A DNA stretch of 64,000 nt from positions 1,550,001 to 1,614,000 of the forward strand of contig NC_015145.1 in NCBI RefSeq assembly GCF_000189535.1, given 5' to 3'. Position 1 is the first letter of the stretch. Every line of letters begins with the position of its first letter. A program made the translations under genes and the position numbers. This document shows positions 3,843-45,820 of the stretch, piece after piece. The DNA comes from Pseudarthrobacter phenanthrenivorans Sphe3. GTDB taxonomy: Bacteria; Actinomycetota; Actinomycetes; Actinomycetales; Micrococcaceae. The notes beneath the pieces are model-generated. The model did no database searches. It had not been told where the DNA came from and worked only from the letters and a program-made list of their open reading frames with translations.

Positions 3843-5132
3843 GTGAATTTCGCCCTCTACCGGGAGTTGCTTGCCGTCCGGCCAATACGCCGGCTGTTGC
3901 TGGTGGGTATGGTTGCCCGGATCCCCCACTCGGCAGCGGGGGTGCTGCTGACCCTGCACATCGTCCTCACCCTGGACCAGGGATATGCCGCCGCCGGTGC
4001 TGCGGCCGCCGTCATGACCATCGGCATCGCTGTTGGCGCCCCTTGGCGCGGGCGGCGGGTGGACACGGTGGGCCTGCGTACCGCGTTGATCCCGTCGGTT
4101 ATTTCCGAATCGGTCATCTGGTCCGTTGTTCCGCATGTGTCCTACCAGTGGCTCCTGCCGCTTGTGTTCGTAGGCGGGCTCCTGACGCTTCCCATCTTCA
4201 GCGTGGTGCGCCAGTCGCTGGGTGTACTGGCCGACGGCGATCAGCGCCGTACGGCCTTCGCGCTGGATGCGATCACGACCGAGATAGTCTTCATGATCGG
4301 CCCGGCTGCCGGGGCGATCGTCGCCACCAGCGGCTTCACGGTGCTGGGACTGACGGTTGTCGGTGTATCCACGTCCTTGGCCGGGTTGTTCCTGATGTGG
4401 TTCAACCCGCCCACCCGCAGCGCCGGGCAGGCAGGGGAAAGCAGCCTGGAGGAGCGCCATGCTGCCGAGGCGGCGGTAGTTGCCGCTGCCCCCGCCCACC
4501 TCCAGGAGCCGGCCGCCGAGCTGGCGCATGCAGAAGCGCGCGGAGGCCCGGGACTGCGCGGCAGGGTGGCCCACAACTTTGCCTGGTTCACCGCCACCGT
4601 GGCGGCAGTCTTTGCCGTCGCGGCCGGCGCGGGGATGGTCCTCAGCGGCACGGACGTGGGGATTGTTGCAGCCTTGGAGCTGGGCGGGCACCAGCGCGAA
4701 ATCGGCATTGTCTTCGTCTTTTGGTGCGCCGCGTCCGTGGTGGGCGGGCTGGTCTACGGTGCGATGCACCGGCCGGTGTCGCCCATTCTCCTGCTGCTTG
4801 GCATGGCGGCACTGACCATCCCCATGGGCTTCGCGCACGACACCTGGACCCTGGCGTTCGTTTCCATCCTGCCGGGACTGCTGTGCGCGCCGGTTTTGTC
4901 CTCCGCGTCGGAAAAAGTTGCCGACCTGGTGGCCGAGGACCGCCGCGGGGAAGCGATGGGCTGGTACGGCTCCGCCCTGACGGCAGGCGTGGCCCTGGGC
5001 GCACCGCTGGCGGGCATTTTCATCGACGGCATCGGGCCCTCCGGCGGGTTCGTCTCGGTGGGCGTTGCCGGTGTGGTGCTGTGCTTTGCCGGACTGGTGC
5101 TGCAGCAGCGGCGGCGGCGCGCTGCCGTGTGA
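3843..5132 (+). CDS. MFS transporter
   Basis: A 429-residue polytopic membrane protein with about 12 hydrophobic segments and a central polar linker (residues about 190-250, Ala/Glu-rich). It starts with GTG 57 bp after the SseB-domain gene. The first half carries the MFS pattern of short basic loops, including G-A-P-W-R-G-R-R-V-D between helices 2 and 3. It resembles the DHA-type exporter branch, but the substrate cannot be read from the sequence. It converges on the DUF1844 gene, with an inverted repeat between them at 5155-5192. Confidence 0.8.
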   Translation: MNFALYRELLAVRPIRRLLLVGMVARIPHSAAGVLLTLHIVLTLDQGYAAAGAAAAVMTIGIAVGAPWRGRRVDTVGLRTALIPSVISESVIWSVVPHVSYQWLLPLVFVGGLLTLPIFSVVRQSLGVLADGDQRRTAFALDAITTEIVFMIGPAAGAIVATSGFTVLGLTVVGVSTSLAGLFLMWFNPPTRSAGQAGESSLEERHAAEAAVVAAAPAHLQEPAAELAHAEARGGPGLRGRVAHNFAWFTATVAAVFAVAAGAGMVLSGTDVGIVAALELGGHQREIGIVFVFWCAASVVGGLVYGAMHRPVSPILLLLGMAALTIPMGFAHDTWTLAFVSILPGLLCAPVLSSASEKVADLVAEDRRGEAMGWYGSALTAGVALGAPLAGIFIDGIGPSGGFVSVGVAGVVLCFAGLVLQQRRRRAAV

Positions 5133-5154
5133 ACCCCTCCTGCGGTTAAATGCA

Positions 5155-5192
5155 CGACGGCGGGCCGACCTTTGGAGGCCCGCCCGCCGTCG
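5155..5192. terminator. Bidirectional hairpin between convergent genes
   Basis: An 11-bp perfect inverted repeat (5155-5165 with 5182-5192, arms CGACGGCGGGC and GCCCGCCGTCG) sits between the converging MFS gene and DUF1844 gene. No strong T-tract follows, so termination is inferred from its position and stability. Confidence 0.5.
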
Positions 5193-5214
5193 TGGACTGC
5201 CGGGGGAGTGACGC

Positions 5215-5598
5215 TTAGTTGACTGCGCCCGTGTACTTTTCGCCTGGGCCCTTGCCCGGTGCGTCGGGGATCAGCGACTCTTCGCGGAAGGCCAGCTGCA
5301 GGGAGCGCAGTCCGTCGCGCAACGGGCCGGCGTGCTGGGAACCAATTTCCGGCGCGGCTGCCGTGACGAGCCCTGCCAGCGCAGTGATCAGCTTCCGCGC
5401 TTCGTCCAGGTCCTTGAGCTCTTCGGCGTTCTCTTCCGCAGCCAGGCCAAGCTTGACCGCGGCGGCGCTCATCAGGTGCACCGCGGCGGTGGTGATGACC
5501 TCAATGGCCGGCACTTCGGAAATGTCGCGGATCTGCTGTGAGACGTCGCCGGGGCCGGCGGGCTCGAAAACGTGTGAATTACTGTCTGGGGTGCTCAT
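5215..5598 (-). CDS. DUF1844-domain protein
   Basis: A 127-residue protein of the DUF1844 family. It has the characteristic I-S-E-V-P-A-I-E-V-I-T-T-A-A-V-H-L-M-S-A-A-A-V-K-L-G region (split here as a short helical block, residues about 27-53), then D-L-D-E-A-R and a helical segment with L-R-D-G-L-R. In actinobacteria this gene is regularly next to infC, transcribed the opposite way, as here. Function is unknown. Its start lies 343 bp from the infC start, so the two share a divergent control region. Confidence 0.8.
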   Translation of the reverse strand: MSTPDSNSHVFEPAGPGDVSQQIRDISEVPAIEVITTAAVHLMSAAAVKLGLAAEENAEELKDLDEARKLITALAGLVTAAAPEIGSQHAGPLRDGLRSLQLAFREESLIPDAPGKGPGEKYTGAVN

Positions 5599-5608
5599 AC
5601 TGGTAAGC

Positions 5609-5637
5609 TTGACACAGACCGACTGGATGTCGTTATT
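5609..5637 (+). promoter_or_regulatory. Candidate infC operon promoter
   Basis: TTGACA at 5609-5614, a 17-bp spacer, then GTTATT at 5632-5637. The -35 is perfect and the -10 weak. Two other possible -10 boxes lie downstream: TACAAT at 5654-5659 and TAGAAT at 5702-5707. Which one is used decides whether the T6 hairpin at 5665 lies inside the infC leader. Confidence 0.4.
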
Positions 5638-5664
5638 TCAGGGATTGTTCCCATACAATCAAGG

Positions 5665-5698
5665 TTCCCAGCAACGCCTGCGTTGTCGGGAATTTTTT
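5665..5698 (+). terminator. Hairpin followed by T6 upstream of infC
   Basis: Arms 5665-5677 and 5680-5692 pair over 13 positions with one A-C mismatch and one G-U, followed directly by six T residues (5693-5698). This is a classic intrinsic terminator on the plus strand. It either blocks transcription entering from upstream or acts as an attenuator if infC is transcribed from 5609 or 5654. Confidence 0.6.
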
Positions 5699-5867
5699 CT
5701 GTAGAATGACATGCAGTTTGCAAGCGGAGTTCTCTCCCACCCGCGTCAGCCGCTGTTCCAGCTGTTTATGGAACGCAAGGTTGCCGGGTACCTGGTCGGG
5801 CAAGGAACCGGTATTCGCCGGATCCCTGCAGGCAGTCCCCCCGCGGGACCCGCATCCGATCTTTCAG

Positions 5868-5908
5868 AGGCCTTCGATTGCTCCGGCAATTGGGGGCCTT
5901 CTCTATTT
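5868..5908 (+). promoter_or_regulatory. Attenuator-like hairpin in the infC leader
   Basis: A 14-bp uninterrupted stem (5868-5881 with 5886-5899, including four G-U pairs) closed by a UCCG loop and followed by a pyrimidine-rich TCTCTATTT run. It ends 42 nt before the infC start codon. Together with a smaller stem at 5755-5760/5769-5774 it makes the leader strongly structured. Control of the infC-rpmI-rplT operon by leader attenuation is an inference from position and shape. Confidence 0.5.
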
Positions 5909-5941
5909 GCCGGAATCCACAACAACAACAGGAGCTTTAAC

Positions 5942-6997
5942 ATTAGCGAGCCAAGAATCAATGAGCGTATCCGCGTCCCCGAGGTGCGGCTGGTCGGCCC
6001 TGCAGGTGAACAGGTAGGAATCGTCCGTATTGAGGATGCCCTGCGTCTGGCTGCCGAGTCCGACCTTGATCTCGTTGAAGTTGCACCTCAGGCCAAGCCT
6101 CCGGTGTGCAAGCTGATGGACTTCGGCAAGTACAAGTACGAGGCCGCGGTTAAGGCACGTGAAGCCCGGAAGAACCAGACGAACACCGTTCTGAAGGAAA
6201 TCCGCTTCCGCCTGAAAATCGACACCCACGATTACGAGACCAAGCGCGGGCACGCACTGCGCTTCCTCGGCGCCGGGGACAAGGTCAAGGCAATGATCCA
6301 GTTCCGCGGCCGCGAGCAGCAGCGTCCGGAGATGGGCATCCGCCTGCTCCAGCGCTTCGCGGAGGACGTCGCAGAGGTCGGTGTGGTGGAGTCCAGCCCC
6401 CGTATTGACGGCCGCAACATGGTCATGGTGGTTGGCCCGCTGAAGAACAAGGCAGAGGCCAAGGCCGAGGCACGCCGCGCTACCCAGCGCGCCGAAGCCA
6501 AGGCCCAGAACGAAGCCAAGGCCTCCGGCCGCGTCGACGTATCCGGAAACGACCAGGCCCCCATGACGCAGTCCCTTGCGGACCTGCTTCCTGAGGGATT
6601 CACCGTCTCCACGGAGCCCGAGGCAGCAGCCGAAGCCCCCGCACAGGAGCCGGCTGCCGCCGTCGAACCTGCCGCCGTCGAACCTGCTCCAGCCGAAGCG
6701 CCCGCGAAGGCCGCAGAAGCACCCAAGCAGGAGGCACCAAAGCAGGAGGCACCCAAGCAGGAAGCCCCGAAGGCAGCTCCAAGGGCTGCTGCTCCAAAGG
6801 CTGCTGTGCCGAAGGCTGCAGAGCCCAAGGCTGCGCCGGCCCAGCCGGCGGCAGGGGAGAAGCCCGCTGCGGCAGCTCCGAAGCCTGCAGCAGTCCCCGC
6901 CCCGCCGAAGCCGGTGGCAAGGCCTGCTGCGCCGAAGCCTGCCGCCCGCCCTGCCCCCAAGGCAGCGCCCAAGCCGGTTGGCAAGAAAAACACTTAG
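5942..6997 (+). CDS. infC: Translation initiation factor IF-3 with rare ATT start and long C-terminal tail
   Basis: IF-3 prevents early 50S joining and checks the start codon. The IF3-N domain spans about residues 4-75 ([10 protein letters not shown], then [11 protein letters not shown]) and IF3-C about 80-170 ([16 protein letters not shown]). I start it at ATT 5942: no ATG, GTG or TTG lies in frame near the conserved N-terminus, and AGGAG at 5930-5934 sits 7 nt upstream of the ATT. ATT is the known unusual infC start, used for self-repression in E. coli. The protein is 351 residues because of an Ala/Pro/Lys/Glu-rich tail of about 175 residues, with repeated P-K-Q-E-A units, where most IF-3 proteins end near 180. 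Confidence 0.93.
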
Positions 6998-40903: not shown

Positions 40904-41019
40904 GCCCAGACAAGCCCACCCACCACCATCACCCCCGCCCGACCGGCATCGACCACCACGACAGCGTCGAAAGACCCAACAACAACTGATAGAGCGTCCA
41001 GGGCAGGTTCAAGGGGTCG

Positions 41020-41768
41020 TTGCAACACCTGAGTGATTGGGGTGTTGTTGTGGGTTTTGGTCGGCCTGAGCTGTTGCAGTCGGTGGTGCGGGTTTTCTGG
41101 GAGGCGCGGTCTTCTGGGGCATCTGATGAGGTGGCGGCGGCGGTGGCCGGTATGTCCCTGTCTGCGGCCAGGTTGATCGTCCGTCAGCATGGTGGGGTGG
41201 ATCCTGCGAAGAAGCCCCCGTGCGGGCGGTTCCTGTCCTTCGATGAGCGCGAGTTGATCGCTGTGTGGCGGGCGGCCGGGTGCGGCGTGCGGGAGATCGG
41301 TCGGCGTTTGGGCCGGAACCCGTCCACTGTCAGCAGGGAGCTGGGCAGGAACATCCGGAACGGGGGCAACCGTCCGTACCTGGCGTCCTCGGCGCAGAAC
41401 CGTGCGCAGAAGCTGGCGCGCAGGCCTAAGGCACGGAAGCTGGTTTTCAACGAGGCCCTGGCGCTTTACGTCGCCGGAATGCTGACGGCGCGGGAACGGT
41501 TGTCCCCGGAGCAGATCAGCGCCCGGCTGCGGATTGATTTCCCCGATGATGAAAGCATGCGCATCAGCCCGGAGACTATCTATCAGTGCATCTACATCCA
41601 GGGCCGCGGCGGGCTGAGAGCCGAGCTCGCTGCTGCTCTGCGCACCGGCCGGGCCGTGCGGCAGCCAAACCGGCGCGCGGGCATGCGAAGGCCCCGGGTC
41701 CCGCAAGAGTTGCTGATCAGTGAACGCCCCGCGGAAGCCGATGACCGGGCAGTGCCCGGGCACTGGGA
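41020..41768 (+). pseudogene. IS30-family transposase, N-terminal part (interrupted)
   Basis: About 249 residues. A helix-turn-helix (R-E-I-G-R-R-L-G-R-N-P-S-T-V-S-R-E-L) near residue 100 is the IS30 DNA-binding domain, and the part ends at V-P-G-H-W-E, just before the first catalytic Asp. The TTG at 41020 lies inside the inverted repeat, so the real start is probably one of the GTG codons shortly downstream. Joining 41768 to 43226 keeps the frame and completes G-H-W-E-G-D-L-I-I-G. Confidence 0.85.
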
Positions 41769-41783
41769 ATCTCAATGTTTCTG

Positions 41784-42986
41784 TCAAGCCGCCTGAGCGG
41801 TGATGCGTGGCATTGGTTCCTGGTAGATGGTGTGGTCACGGAGCATCGCCCAGAGGACGTTGATGCGACGTCTGGCGAGGGCGATGAGGGCCTGTTTATG
41901 CGACTTTCCTTCTCCGCGCTTCCGGTCGTAATAGGTTCTTGAGGCCGCGCTGTTCTTCAAGCTGGAGAGGGCGGCGAGGTAACAGGTCCGCAGGAGCCTG
42001 CGGTTAAAGCGACGTGGTCGGTGCAGGTTCCCGCTGATTCGTCCGGAATCGCGCGGGACGGGAGCCAGCCCCGCGACGCTGGCGAGCCGGTCGACTGAGT
42101 CAAACGCGTCCAGGTTGCCGCCGATGTTCGCGAGAAAAGTAGCTGCGAGTACGGGGCCGAAGCCCGGCATGGTGAGCAAAACATCGGCGCTGTCGTGCTT
42201 CCCGAACAGGTCCGTGATCTGGGCATCGATGCCGGCGATCTCCGCATCGAGAGTGCTGATTTGCCCGGCCAGCCGGACGACCAGGGCAGAGCCTGTGGTC
42301 TGAGTTGGCAGTACGGTGTGCTGGGAGTTTGCGGCTATCAGTGCCTTCTCTGCCATCTTGGCACTATTGCGGCAGCCGCGTTTCCTCAGCCAACCGGTGA
42401 GCCGAGCTAGTCCGATCCGCCGGATGCCCTCGGGTGTCTGGTAGCCGCCCAGGAGGACCAGGGGCGCCTGTTTGGAGTAGTCGAACGCACGCTCGAGAGC
42501 CGGGAAATATTCCAGCAAGGTGGCGCGGAGCCTGTTGATCGCCCGGACACGGTCGCAGATCAGATCCGTACGGCGGGCGGTGAGGAGCCGCAGGTCAACG
42601 CTGATCTGGTCCGTGCGGCGGACTGGTTGGAGGTCCGTGCGCATCCGTGCCTGGTCAGCGATGATCCTGGCATCTTTCGCGTCGGTCTTGCCATCTCCGC
42701 GGTAGGTCTCCGCAGCGTGATGCACGATCCGTCCAGGTATATAGAGCAGTTGCTGGGCGTGCGCGGCCAACAACTCGATCAACAGGGCCGCTCCGCCGGA
42801 ATTCAGATCCGTGGCCCAGCAGACTTCGCCCCCGGCCGCGATCTCCGCGATCGTGGCTATGAGTTCGAGCACTGCGTTTTCGTCGTTCTCGACCCGTTTC
42901 GAGAGCAGCACGGTCCCCGTCTGATCGATCACGACGCAATGATGTGCTCTTTTGCCTGAGTCGATTCCTACCCAGAATGCCGGCAT
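41784..42986 (-). CDS. IS110-family transposase (RNA-guided bridge recombinase)
   Basis: A 400-residue intact protein. The N-terminal DEDD RuvC-like domain has Asp9 in V-G-I-D-S-G-K, Asp60 in C-W-A-T-D, and Asp102/Asp105 in K-T-D-A-K-D-A-R. A helical middle region (about 140-260) leads to the C-terminal Tnp domain: M-P-G-F-G-P-V-L-A near residue 273, A-G-L-A-P near 305 and S-G-R-I-S-G, whose Ser314 (or Ser318) is the expected nucleophile. IS110 enzymes excise the element as a circle and insert it at a site chosen by a bridge RNA. The TGA stop overlaps the TTGACA of a junction promoter. Confidence 0.95.
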   Translation of the reverse strand: MPAFWVGIDSGKRAHHCVVIDQTGTVLLSKRVENDENAVLELIATIAEIAAGGEVCWATDLNSGGAALLIELLAAHAQQLLYIPGRIVHHAAETYRGDGKTDAKDARIIADQARMRTDLQPVRRTDQISVDLRLLTARRTDLICDRVRAINRLRATLLEYFPALERAFDYSKQAPLVLLGGYQTPEGIRRIGLARLTGWLRKRGCRNSAKMAEKALIAANSQHTVLPTQTTGSALVVRLAGQISTLDAEIAGIDAQITDLFGKHDSADVLLTMPGFGPVLAATFLANIGGNLDAFDSVDRLASVAGLAPVPRDSGRISGNLHRPRRFNRRLLRTCYLAALSSLKNSAASRTYYDRKRGEGKSHKQALIALARRRINVLWAMLRDHTIYQEPMPRITAQAA

Positions 42987-43029
42987 GTTCAGTCTCCTTC
43001 GATCAGCTCCAATTTCGGTTGGCCCTGTC

Positions 43030-43180
43030 GATAACTACGCCGGCACGTCCTTACCCAACGATCAATGTCGTAATTCTCAATCAGCGGTCGAGTCATCGGC
43101 GGGCAGCGGGCGGCCATTCCCAGTGAGCCATCCAAGCGGCAGGGCGACCTAGGCCATACCCGCCACCCGAGGGTGATCGA
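43030..43180 (-). ncRNA. Predicted bridge RNA of the IS110 element
   Basis: Read on the minus strand. A 5' hairpin CACC-CTCG-GGTG (43175-43164) comes first. The target loop follows, closed by GCGGG/CCCGC and GGCC/GGCC (43163-43152 with 43115-43106) and capped by GCC/GGC (43140-43138 with 43129-43127). Its left side, 43150-43141, reads AGGTCGCCCT against AGATCGCCCT in the flank (43234-43225). Its right side, 43125-43116, reads CACTGGGAAT, identical to 41761-41770. The donor loop is closed by CGCCG/CGGCG and capped by ACGA/TCGT (43071-43068 with 43061-43058). It holds ATTGAGA (43081-43075, equal to the element right end at 41776-41770) and GTAAGGA (43054-43048, complementary to the element left end at 43219-43225). 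Limits are approximate. Confidence 0.8.
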
Positions 43181-43225
43181 AACACTACGACAGCTCCGAA
43201 ATCACCCACAACAAAATCGTAAGGA

Positions 43226-43685
43226 GGGCGATCTGATCATCGGTACCCCTGGCGCCGGGGCGATCGGAACCCTCGTGGAACGCAGTAGCCGTTTCGTGAT
43301 GCTCCTGCACCTGCCTAACGGACATACCGGCGAGCAGGTGCTGGCCGCCATCGAGGCAACCCTTCCGACCCTGCCGGCCCAGCTGCGCCGGTCCCTGACC
43401 TGGGACCAAGGCGCTGAGATGGTCGGCATTCACGAACGCGTCAGGATCGCCACCGGCGCCGAGGTCTACTTCTGCGATCCTCACTCACCCTGGCAACGCG
43501 GCACGAACGAGAACACCAACGGACTCCTGCGACAGTACTTCCCCAAAGGCATGGACCTCACCACCGTCACCCGCGCAGACCTCGACTACGCTGCCGCAGG
43601 ACTCAACGGACGCCTACGCAAAACCCTCGGCTGGAAAACACCCGCACAAGCCCTCCAGCAAATACTGGAAGAATCAGCAGCATAG
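43226..43685 (+). pseudogene. IS30-family transposase, C-terminal part (interrupted)
   Basis: The rest of the DDE domain: G-D-L-I-I-G with the first Asp, a second acidic region at T-W-D-Q-G-A-E-M, and D-P-H-S-P-W-Q-R-G-T-N-E-N-T-N-G with the final Glu, all typical of IS30. It runs to the TAG just inside the right inverted repeat. With the N-terminal part it would give about 402 residues from 41020. No start codon of its own is expected to be used. Confidence 0.88.
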
Positions 43686-43714
43686 GACGTGTTGCAACGA
43701 CCACTTGAATCCGC

Positions 43715-43778
43715 CCAGGGAAACCCGACATCAACTGCGAGAGCGTCCAGGGAAACCCCACATCAAGTGCGAGAGCGT
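43715..43778 (-). repeat. 32-bp-period repeat units right of the IS30 element
   Basis: Two units in inverted orientation relative to the 40712 array; GAGAGCG ends at 43745 and 43777, 32 bp apart, each preceded by CATCAA-S-TGC and CCAGGGAAACCC. A third, older unit (GAGCG ending at 40996) lies on the other side of the insertion. Confidence 0.85.
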
Positions 43779-43963
43779 GTGAATAATGCCACGATGCTGC
43801 TGCCTGGGCTTCACTCCGTCCTGCCGGTAGGGGCGTCTCCTCTAGAATTGATAAAGATGTACGGACTTCGAAGCGCTTGATTTCGGGTTGCGTAGGAAAA
43901 CAAAACACGGATACGAGCGGCTGCAGTTGCGCCAGTGGTCAGCTCACAACAGGAGGAATCCAC

Positions 43964-45820
43964 ATGGCTGAGCACAACGGGGGCAACCGGGGCGGCAACG
44001 ACCGCGGCGGGTTCCGCGGCAACAACAATTCTGGCGGGGAGCCCCGCGGGTTCCGTGCCCGCACCAACCGAGACGGCAGCGATCCCGCGCGGCGTTCTGC
44101 CAGCGGTGGAGAGCGCAAGCCTTTCGGTGACCGTGACAAGAAGCCTTTTGGTGACCGTGACAAGAAGCCTTTTGGTGAGCGTCCGCGTCGTGACGGCGAG
44201 GGTGATCGCCGTGGATTCGGTGGCGGCGAGCGTAAGCCCTTCGGCGACCGTGACCGTAAGCCGTACGGAGACCGGGAGAACCGATCCTTTGGTGAGCGTC
44301 CGCGTCGTGACGGCGAGGGGGACCGCCGTGGATTCGGTGGCGGCGAGCGTAAGCCCTTCGGCGACCGTGACCGCAAACCGTACGGCGACCGGGAGAACCG
44401 AACCTTCGGGGACCGTCCGCGTCGTGACGGCGAGGGGGATCGCCGTGGATTCGGTGGCGGCGAGCGTAAGCCCTTCCGCGACCGTGACCGTAAGCCCTTT
44501 GGTGACCGTGACCGTAAGCCGTACGGCGACCGGGAGAACCGCTCCTTCGGGGACCGCCCTCGGCGTGACGGAGAAGGCGACCGCCGTGGCTTCGGTGGGG
44601 GAGAGAACCGGAAACCCTTCGGTGACCGCAGCGAAAGGCCAGCCCGCGGTGACCGCCAGGACCGCGCGCCCCGCAGCTTCGACCGCGGTGCCAGCCGTGG
44701 CGACGCCGGTCCCCGCAGCTTCGGGCGTGACCGCCAGGAAGACCGTCCTGTTCGGGTGCCCAACGTCCGTGACCTCCGCAGCGCGAACCGGCCGGACCGC
44801 GAAAGGTCGCCGGAAATTGATGAGGATGTCACAGGCAAGGAACTTGACCGCGCCACCCAGCACCAGATCAAGACGCTCGAGGCGAAGAGCGCGGAGTGGG
44901 TCGCCCGCCACCTGGTCATGGCAGGCCGCCTGATCGATGAAGAACCCGAACTCGCTTTCCAGCATGCACTGGCTGCCAGCCGGCGCGGAGGCAGGCTGGC
45001 AGCGGTCCGGGAAGCCGTAGGGCTGACGGCCTACGCAGCCGGCCACTATGGCGAGGCCCTGCGGGAGTTCCGCACATACCGCCGCATCAGCGGGTCCAAC
45101 GTCCACCTTCCGGTCATGGCGGACTGTGAACGTGGCCTGGGCCGCCCGGACCGCGCCTTGGACGTGGCACGGTCTGAAGAAGCCCAGGACCTGGATGCCC
45201 CCGGCAAAGCGGAGCTCGCAATCGTGGCCGCCGGTGCCAGGACAGACCTCGGCCAGCTGGACGCCGCTGTGGCCGAACTGGAAATCCCTCAGCTGGACAT
45301 CAACCGGGCCTTTTCCTACAGCCCGCGGCTGTTCCGTGCCTACGCTGACGCCCTGTCCGGCGTAGGCCGCGACGAGGAGGCTGAGAAATGGCGCAAGCAG
45401 GCCGTCGTGGCCGAAAACGCCTTGGGCCAGGGTGTGGATGAGGAGCCCGACATCATCGACCTCGGCTGGGACGAGGAGGAAGAGGCCAGGGAAGAAGCCG
45501 AACGCCGCCGTTTGCTGGAGCGCGCCTCCCAGGCGTCCAAGACCGCCCCCAAGGCCGCATCCGCTGCCGGCGCAGCTGAAGCCGTGCCCGGAGCCAGCCC
45601 GGCCAGCGAGCCGCAGGACGCCGGCATCGACGACCAGGAAGCCGACTACTTTGTCTCCGATGACGCTGAATCGGACGAGGACTCCGTGGAGCCGGACGAG
45701 CTGGAGACCGCAACCGAAAACGACGGCGGCGCTGACGGCGGCCATGCTGAGGCAGGCGATGCTGACGGTCAGGACCTGGAATACCAGGCCGGGGACCAGC
45801 AGGACCGCCGGGAAGACTGA
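43964..45820 (+). CDS. RG/RD-repeat disordered protein with C-terminal TPR-like domain
   Basis: A 618-residue protein from ATG 43964, with AGGAGGA 8 nt upstream. Residues about 1-290 are disordered and rich in Arg, Gly and Asp, with about four copies of a 39-residue unit built of R-K-P-F-G-D-R-D-R-K-P-Y-G-D and R-P-R-R-D-G-E-G-D-R-R-G-F-G-G-G-E. Residues about 320-510 are helical and TPR-like (A-F-Q-H-A-L-A-A-S, Y-G-E-A-L-R-E-F-R-T-Y). An acidic tail follows. I do not know its function. The RG-rich part suggests RNA binding. The long opposite-strand frame here is a by-product of the biased codons. TAGAAT at 43850-43855 may be its -10. Confidence 0.8.
   Translation: MAEHNGGNRGGNDRGGFRGNNNSGGEPRGFRARTNRDGSDPARRSASGGERKPFGDRDKKPFGDRDKKPFGERPRRDGEGDRRGFGGGERKPFGDRDRKPYGDRENRSFGERPRRDGEGDRRGFGGGERKPFGDRDRKPYGDRENRTFGDRPRRDGEGDRRGFGGGERKPFRDRDRKPFGDRDRKPYGDRENRSFGDRPRRDGEGDRRGFGGGENRKPFGDRSERPARGDRQDRAPRSFDRGASRGDAGPRSFGRDRQEDRPVRVPNVRDLRSANRPDRERSPEIDEDVTGKELDRATQHQIKTLEAKSAEWVARHLVMAGRLIDEEPELAFQHALAASRRGGRLAAVREAVGLTAYAAGHYGEALREFRTYRRISGSNVHLPVMADCERGLGRPDRALDVARSEEAQDLDAPGKAELAIVAAGARTDLGQLDAAVAELEIPQLDINRAFSYSPRLFRAYADALSGVGRDEEAEKWRKQAVVAENALGQGVDEEPDIIDLGWDEEEEAREEAERRRLLERASQASKTAPKAASAAGAAEAVPGASPASEPQDAGIDDQEADYFVSDDAESDEDSVEPDELETATENDGGADGGHAEAGDADGQDLEYQAGDQQDRRED

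What the first reader, a model, noticed from the sequence alone, without database searches (positions are those of the whole stretch)
42987..43225. IS110 bridge RNA whose four guide segments can be read directly from the insertion
In transposase orientation the 239-nt non-coding stretch has, in order, AGGTCGCCCT (43150-43141), CACTGGGAAT (43125-43116), ATTGAGA (43081-43075) and GTAAGGA (43054-43048). The first equals the left target flank AGATCGCCCT (43234-43225) with one G-U-compatible change. The second is the complement of the right target flank (identical to 41761-41770 on the plus strand; its last two bases are already inside the element). The third equals the element's right end (41776-41770). 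The fourth is complementary to its left end (43219-43225). This is the LTG-RTG-LDG-RDG order and strand logic described for IS110/IS621 bridge RNAs. Both pairs sit in internal loops between visible stems (43163-43152/43115-43106 with cap 43140-43138/43129-43127; cap 43071-43068/43061-43058). A 10-nt match by chance in 239 nt is unlikely.
Basis: partly seen in the sequence, partly recalled or inferred. Interest (0 to 1): 0.92.

Follow-up and report, generated by a model that had tools for sequence, protein, structure and literature searches.

The report
RNA-guided transposon that hits other transposons
A small bacterial jumping gene carries a two-part guide RNA that directs it into the catalytic-site codons of another family of jumping genes; the guide RNA is of a recently described kind, and the choice of victim is the interesting part.

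Summary
In detail: all four guide segments lie where stated (31.5 of 32 match points; 0 of 5000 shuffles). The element is an IS110-family insertion sequence with a bridge RNA upstream of its transposase. The genome holds 12 copies at 7 distinct sites. Sixty aligned RNAs (59 relatives and the window) share a two-loop fold with 17 doubly compensated pairs. In relatives with other targets both target guides follow their own flanks (0 of 20000 permutations each), and donor guides change with element ends. Joined ends would form a TTGACA-N17-TACGAT promoter. The new part is the target: HWE^GDL codons of IS30-family transposases. By left flank, all 22 elements of this group sit there; in this genome 10 of 10 IS30 genes reaching the site are split. 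ISEc21, which targets catalytic codons of IS3 transposases, is a published precedent. Transcription and activity are untested. Verdict: new member of a known kind.

The parts
41769..43225 (-). IS110-family insertion sequence, with one copy of core TC (43225-43224) and donor position 7 (41769)
   Evidence: 12 copies in the genome; ends set by comparing copies with different flanks
41784..42986 (-). IS110-family transposase, 400 aa; D9, D60, D102, D105, S314 where DEDD plus Ser are expected (D9 and D60 by motif only)
   Evidence: NF033542 240 bits (cut-off 140), PF01548, PF02371; PDB hits ISCro4 and IS621; columns in 69 rows
43023..43175 (-). bridge RNA, the conserved two-loop part as aligned; the transcript probably starts near 43209 (inferred from the -10 box)
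   Evidence: alignment A1, 60 rows; 33 pairs, 17 doubly compensated
43141..43150 (-). left target guide (LTG)
43118..43125 (-). right target guide (RTG) CACTGGGA, with GA as core guide
43116..43117 (-). putative handshake guide AT, complementary to donor positions 7 and 6
   Evidence: position 7 complementary in 42 of 45 loci; position 6 invariant T-A in 45 of 45
43075..43081 (-). left donor guide (LDG)
43048..43054 (-). right donor guide (RDG)
   Evidence: changes together with the element's left end
43226..43234 (-). left target AGATCGCCC (antisense to the GDL codons of IS30)
41761..41768 (-). core TC and right target CCAGTG (antisense to the HW codons and the first two bases of the Glu codon of IS30)
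41782..41787 (-). -35-like box TTGACA in the right end, overlapping the transposase stop codon; would act only when the ends are joined (inferred)
43216..43221 (-). -10-like box TACGAT in the left end, 17 nt from TTGACA when the ends are joined
41020..41766 (+). N-terminal part of the interrupted IS30-family transposase, up to HW
   Evidence: NF033563 positions 1-138
43226..43685 (+). C-terminal part of the same IS30-family transposase, from GDLIIG
   Evidence: NF033563 positions 137-267

Best explanation
The stretch encodes the bridge RNA (seekRNA) of an IS110-group insertion sequence. When the element is a circle, its joined ends form a promoter that transcribes the RNA. [quoted passage not shown] In this group the guides are written against the HWE^GDL codons of IS30-family transposases, so the element inserts into, and breaks, IS30 elements. 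Shown here by sequence: guide matches and covariation, fold, ends, empty sites, junction promoter motif, target identity, occupancy. Inferred: transcription, circle formation, RNA-protein complex, catalysis, and that damage to IS30 is a selected strategy and not a by-product.
For: Guide segments at the stated places, 0 of 5000 shuffles. 12 copies at 7 distinct sites in one genome. Two-loop consensus: 96.6% of cells paired, against 90.7% in column shuffles and 28-54% with slid partners. Relatives with other targets: LTG fits its own left flank 6.96 of 8 against a permuted mean of 5.20, 0 of 20000, 42 distinct pairs; RTG fits its own right flank 4.85 of 6 against 2.39, 0 of 20000, 20 distinct pairs. 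RDG: 62 of 67 non-empty guides have their exact complement in the left-end segment, in six types, among them GTAGAGC/GCTCTAC with a GC core in L089. Junction-spanning promoter score of 9 or 10 of 12 in 40 of 45 elements, mean 8.9 against 7.0 in shuffles. Empty IS30 sites: 85 matches in 51 of 149 family genomes against 2 control matches; 15 of 15 fetched encode HWEGDL (40). Own genome: 10 of 10 IS30 genes that reach the site are split there.
Against: No RNA or activity data. Single-sequence fold not better than shuffles. No Rfam family matches the stretch. In the left-flank test the own flank is the single best fit for only 12 of 42 guides. Within the IS30 group guides do not tell their own flank from others' (3977 and 6862 of 20000 permutations; 27, 35), as expected when all share one target. 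5 of 67 RDGs do not match the left end. A two-pair helix of the predicted consensus lies inside LDG (57), so the donor loop is not drawn fully open. The handshake change A-T to T-A follows the group boundary, so it may be one event. L015 fits only on the right and shows a 7-9 bp repeat of target sequence; L014 fits LTG only with a one-base shift.
Confidence: 0.95

Rival explanations
1. The RNA guides as described, but IS30 targeting is only passenger spread: the IS110 entered one IS30 and was copied with it, so guide and flank match by descent.
For: Five copies of IS30-A, and two of IS30-C, carry the element with the same flanks, so some of these may be copies of one event.
Against: Four further IS30 types, whose right flanks are 86, 60, 62 and 69% identical to IS30-A over 100 nt, and two other genes carry the same element: seven distinct sites. 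21 relatives in many actinobacterial genera sit at the same codon site of different IS30s. Relatives with other targets show guide-flank covariation (27, 35).
Confidence: 0.04
2. The non-coding stretch is an ordinary 5' leader (attenuator or antisense regulator) of the transposase, and the guide matches are chance or old target repeats.
For: It lies directly upstream of the transposase; the fold of the single sequence is unremarkable.
Against: 0 of 5000 shuffles; guides change together with target and donor DNA among relatives.
Confidence: 0.01

Closest known systems
IS621 and its bridge RNA (PMC11208160: outline, passages, sections 8 and 12 seen; PMC11208158: passages and section 11 seen)
   Same: IS110 group, RNA upstream of the transposase, LTG-RTG-LDG-RDG order and strand logic, core dinucleotide, handshake guide on the target loop, promoter at the joined ends, RuvC plus Tnp(Ser) protein
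   Different: Core TC, not CT; the window element's LTG reaches only the first core base; target is an IS30 gene, not REP; Asp at the place of E60 (by motif); proteins align only in part by phmmer
ISEc21 and its seekRNA (PMC11187229: outline, passages, sections 12 and 13 seen)
   Same: IS110-group element whose target is a run of codons at the catalytic centre of another family's transposase; promoter formed by abutted ends
   Different: [quoted passage not shown] here it is HWEGDL of IS30-family transposases, by a different, actinobacterial group
IS4321/IS5075 (IS1111 group; seen only as a title in reference lists)
   Same: Insertion sequence of the same wider family that targets transposons
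   Different: [quoted passage not shown]

Membership tests
IS110 family (IS110 group) | IS110-type transposase (PF01548 plus PF02371) | tested here: met
   163.9 and 66.9 bits; NF033542 240 bits, cut-off 140
IS110 family (IS110 group) | DEDD tetrad and catalytic Ser | tested here: inconclusive
   D102, D105 and S314-G315 align with IS621 D102, D105, S241-G242 (chain offset of 2 worked out by hand; the D102-D105 stretch aligns at only 0.1 bits). D9 and D60 are placed by motif; the E60 place reads D in 69 of 69 rows
IS110 family (IS110 group) | Long non-coding left end upstream of the transposase, short right end | tested here: met
   239 nt left, 14-15 nt right
IS110 bridge RNA | Conserved fold with two internal loops | tested here: met
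   a two-pair helix is also predicted inside LDG
IS110 bridge RNA | First loop pairs with both target strands, guides follow targets among relatives | tested here: met
IS110 bridge RNA | Second loop pairs with the donor (element ends) | tested here: met
   LD was located by its likeness to LDG, so that half is circular; the RDG half is not
IS110 bridge RNA | Handshake guide of the target loop complementary to donor position 7 | tested here: met
   42 of 45, but A-T occurs only in the IS30 group and T-A only outside it
IS110 bridge RNA | Handshake guide of the donor loop complementary to target position 7 | not tested
   no call made
IS110 bridge RNA | Shared core, insertion without target duplication | tested here: met
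   L014 against uninterrupted relatives, 9 of 9 loci read; exception L015
IS110 bridge RNA | Promoter formed by joined ends | tested here: met
   as a sequence motif only: 40 of 45
IS110 bridge RNA | RNA made, bound by transposase, needed for recombination | not testable with these tools
   needs experiment

The most novel reading that the evidence does not exclude
A whole clade of IS110 elements has specialised as RNA-guided parasites of IS30 transposons: the guide is written against codons that IS30 cannot change without losing its catalytic Asp, mismatches gather at third codon positions, and in this genome every IS30 gene that reaches the site is occupied. Together with ISEc21 (IS3, second D) and L071 here (a cousin inserted in the TNENTNG motif of an IS30-type gene), this suggests a repeated strategy: aim at the catalytic codons of rival transposases, a safe, abundant and mutation-resistant target that also silences a competitor.
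Probability: 0.5. Interest if true: 0.65.

Novelty: new member of a known kind. Interest (0 to 1): 0.5.

Why it matters
It is a natural case of RNA-guided transposon-against-transposon insertion in which the guide, the target codons, used sites, free sites in relatives and off-target insertions can all be read from sequence. It gives a ready set of natural mismatches for bridge-RNA targeting rules, a diverse family (guides, cores TC and GC, donor types) for comparison, and a testable idea on why guide RNAs settle on catalytic codons of other transposases.

Tried and rejected
Rfam search of 41000-44000 gave one match at E up to 1, nadA at 18.9 bits (gathering score 37.5), taken as chance, and no bridge-RNA family. 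Single-sequence folding gave no support. The idea that the guide puts wobble-capable G or U opposite third codon positions was dropped: at target position 4, 13 of 22 pairs are plain mismatches; what holds is that mismatches gather at third positions (24 of 66 cells against 9 of 132 elsewhere; 6 of those 9 come from L034, L037 and L038, whose guides carry extra bases). The idea that relatives in general hit transposases was not borne out: of 20 longest open flank fragments scanned with Pfam, 15 had no match, one a transposase-type helix-turn-helix (L064), and four others a transhydrogenase, a pyruvyl transferase, a DUF and a helicase-associated match below its cut-off. These fragments are open frames, not known genes, and stand for 20 of the relatives outside the IS30 group, so the scan is weak either way; L071 also gave none although its motif reads as IS30. 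Absence of a promoter in the integrated copy says little, since shuffles expect only 0.3. Literature: the eight searches listed no paper whose title or abstract start links an IS110 element to an IS30 target (lists were capped in 28, 48 and 65); PMC12500396 (passages seen) reports IS110 and IS30 elements in one Kocuria genome without naming a target. Subscription papers, preprints and ISfinder were not searched. The tree puts 20 of 22 IS30-site rows in one branch (97/100); L039 and L077 fell outside on very long branches, most likely because their frames are broken and were translated as they stand.

Full report
What is there. The minus strand of 41769-43225 is an IS110-family insertion sequence. 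Its 400-aa transposase (41784-42986) matches NF033542 'IS110 family RNA-guided transposase' at 240 bits (cut-off 140), PF01548 and PF02371, and by sequence the PDB entries of ISCro4 and IS621. It interrupts an IS30-family transposase gene whose halves lie at 41020-41766 and 43226-43685.

The stated segments are real. LTG 43150-43141, RTG from 43125, LDG from 43081, RDG from 43054, in that order and on the right strands; ordered score 31.5 of 32 against a maximum of 28.0 in 5000 dinucleotide shuffles.

Copies. The genome (4.54 Mb, three contigs) holds 12 copies: 11 full-length including the window's (one, L018, a base longer) and one split by an insertion of about 2.1 kb (L019); a 73% fragment lies elsewhere. 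Comparing flanks gives seven distinct sites: IS30-A (five copies), IS30-B (L012), IS30-C (L009, L013), IS30-D (L010), IS30-E (L018), a gene that reads like a CaiB-type CoA-transferase (L014) and one that reads like a glycosyltransferase (L015; both names are my reading of the sequence, not a search). The left flank keeps the target's own base before the core and the right flank always shows the element's T, so the shared core is best read as TC: LT-TC-CTTACG and TTGAGAT-TC-RT.

Empty sites. For L014, nine of nine relatives read are uninterrupted; in L160 the site is CAGGTCGCC-TC-CCAGGG, so insertion there added and removed nothing (one search found matches in 31 of 59 genomes). For L015 the one relative found (L169) implies a 7-9 bp repeat of target sequence around the element, which the usual model does not predict. 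For IS30, the pattern AGRTCNCCYTCCCARTG occurs 85 times in 51 of 149 genomes of the family against 2 matches of the reversed control, and never in the own genome; 15 of the 85 were fetched and 15 of 15 encode HWEGDL. The occupied left junction (AGRTCNCCYTCCTTACG) occurs 9 times in the own genome and in none of the other 148 (L010's site differs from the pattern). In the own genome 21 of the 23 IS30 profile matches belong to ten genes, all split at the site: ten N-terminal parts end at profile position 139, nine C-terminal parts begin at 137, and the tenth (beside L018) is matched only from 172 although its flank reads GDL; the other two matches are fragments that do not reach the site. With the pattern AGRTCRCCNTCCCARTG no free site with fewer than two mismatches exists in the genome; 32 sites with two mismatches compare with 25 for the reversed control.

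Fold. Free energy of the single sequence is not remarkable (z = -0.05). In 60 aligned rows (the window and 59 of 68 relatives; five identical rows and four with a missing or badly aligned guide region left out) RNAalifold predicts 33 pairs, 17 with changes on both sides. As counted, 96.6% of cells pair, against 90.7% in column shuffles and 28-54% with partners slid by one to three columns. The target loop lies between a 15-pair helix and a 4-pair cap, the donor loop between a 7-pair helix and a 3-pair cap; a two-pair helix is also predicted within LDG.

Guides follow DNA. The search for related loci kept 80 of 122 relatives. I used 68 plus the window and left out 12: L041, L067 and L088 (incomplete), L044-L047, L050, L084 and L086 (look like near-copies of rows kept; not checked), and L091 and L096, for no strong reason. 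I split the rows into an IS30-site group (window, L021-L039, L077, L080) and the rest, with transposase likeness and the blastn, which included flank, in view; so the grouping is not independent of the target, and the tree is the check. Outside the IS30 group, the best 8-nt match of LTG to its own left flank scores 6.96 against 5.20 for permuted partners (0 of 20000; 42 distinct pairs, among them L081, which has almost no flank and scored -1); the own flank is the single best fit for 12 of the 42. RTG to its own right flank scores 4.85 of 6 against 2.39 (0 of 20000; 20 distinct pairs). Three rows were dropped from the left test (L023, L075, L079) and 24 of 69 from the right test because no exact left-donor sequence was found within 90 nt of the stop. 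Within the IS30 group own and other flanks fit alike (3977 and 6862 of 20000), because all share one target. RDG: of 67 non-empty guides 62 have their exact complement in the left-end segment, in the types GTAAGGA 43, ATAAGGA 9, TTAAGGA 4, GTAGGGA 4, GTAGAGC 1, GTATGGA 1; 5 do not. In L089 core, RTG and RDG have all moved from TC to GC.

Handshake. Hiraizumi et al. (PMC11208158, section 11 seen) describe bases next to the core guide of RTG that pair with donor positions 7 and 6 after strand exchange. Here the base after RTG's core guide and donor position 7 are A-T in 21, T-A in 21 and T-T in 3 of 45 loci; the next base and position 6 are T-A in all 45, which shows complementarity but no change. 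A-T occurs only in the IS30 group and T-A only outside it, so the double change may be one event. The matching handshake of the donor loop with the target was not tested.

Promoter. With right and left ends joined in a script, TTGACA in the right end (overlapping the stop codon) and TACGAT in the left end stand 17 nt apart (10 of 12; 0 of 200 shuffles as high); 40 of 45 elements score 9 or 10 of 12 with the boxes on either side of the junction, mean best score 8.9 against 7.0 in shuffles. A scan of the integrated region found no promoter-like site, where 0.3 is expected. IS621 and ISEc21 are reported to make a promoter this way (passages).

Target. The left flanks of all 22 elements of the group decode on the other strand to (E/K)GD followed by L or C: 17 by script, 5 (L029, L030, L034, L039, L077) by my reading of the aligned flanks. 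On the right, 17 of 22 show HW and L031 shows LW; L032 has no right end found, and L035, L039 and L080 have right flanks in which the script finds no such motif. The core TC is the complement of the first two bases of the Glu codon between HW and GDL. That GDL holds the first catalytic Asp of IS30's DDE triad is recalled knowledge, not a call. Guide-flank mismatches fall at third codon positions in 24 of 66 and elsewhere in 9 of 132 cells. In the protein tree 20 of 22 form one branch (97/100); the other two have what look like broken frames. A cousin outside it, L071, has flanks reading TNE on one side and NTNGLLRQYFPKG on the other; the same TNENTNG occurs in IS30-A at 43503, and it is the region of the catalytic Glu (recalled). 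Pfam and NCBIfam did not call that short flank, so this rests on the motif.

Against what is known. Bridge RNAs (seekRNAs) of IS110 elements were described in 2024 (PMC11208160, PMC11187229), so the RNA is expected here. [quoted passage not shown] My searches listed no paper on IS110 elements aimed at IS30 (some lists capped).

Noticed in passing
L015 (C1:778332-779787) against L169: One copy sits in a poor left match, with a 7-9 bp repeat of target sequence on both sides of the element, unlike the clean insertion at L014. Possibly an aberrant or two-step event.
   Followed up: partly
L019 about 4258-6404 (from C1:2984691-2994293): One IS110 copy is split at the 3' edge of the aligned bridge-RNA stretch by an IS21-family element with IstA- and IstB-type genes: a transposon in a transposon in a transposon.
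   Followed up: partly
41784-42986 and relatives: The place of the Glu of the DEDD tetrad reads Asp in 69 of 69 aligned transposases; its alignment to IS621 is by motif only.
   Followed up: partly
L089 2770-4212: Relative whose core is GC instead of TC, with RTG and RDG changed to match.
   Followed up: partly
L071 2747: Relative inserted between TNE and NTNG of an IS30-type transposase.
   Followed up: partly
L034, L037, L038: Left target guides carry 2-3 extra bases, so that the two outermost guide positions no longer fit the flank.
   Followed up: no
L035, L039, L080: Left flank is IS30, right flank shows no IS30 motif: probable deletion or rearrangement next to the element; L035 and L080 read CTTA right after the core, like an element left end.
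   Followed up: no
window 43877-45820 (+): Reading frame of 647 aa with many repeats of the type RPRRDGEGDRRGFGGGERKPFGDRDRKPYG.
   Followed up: no
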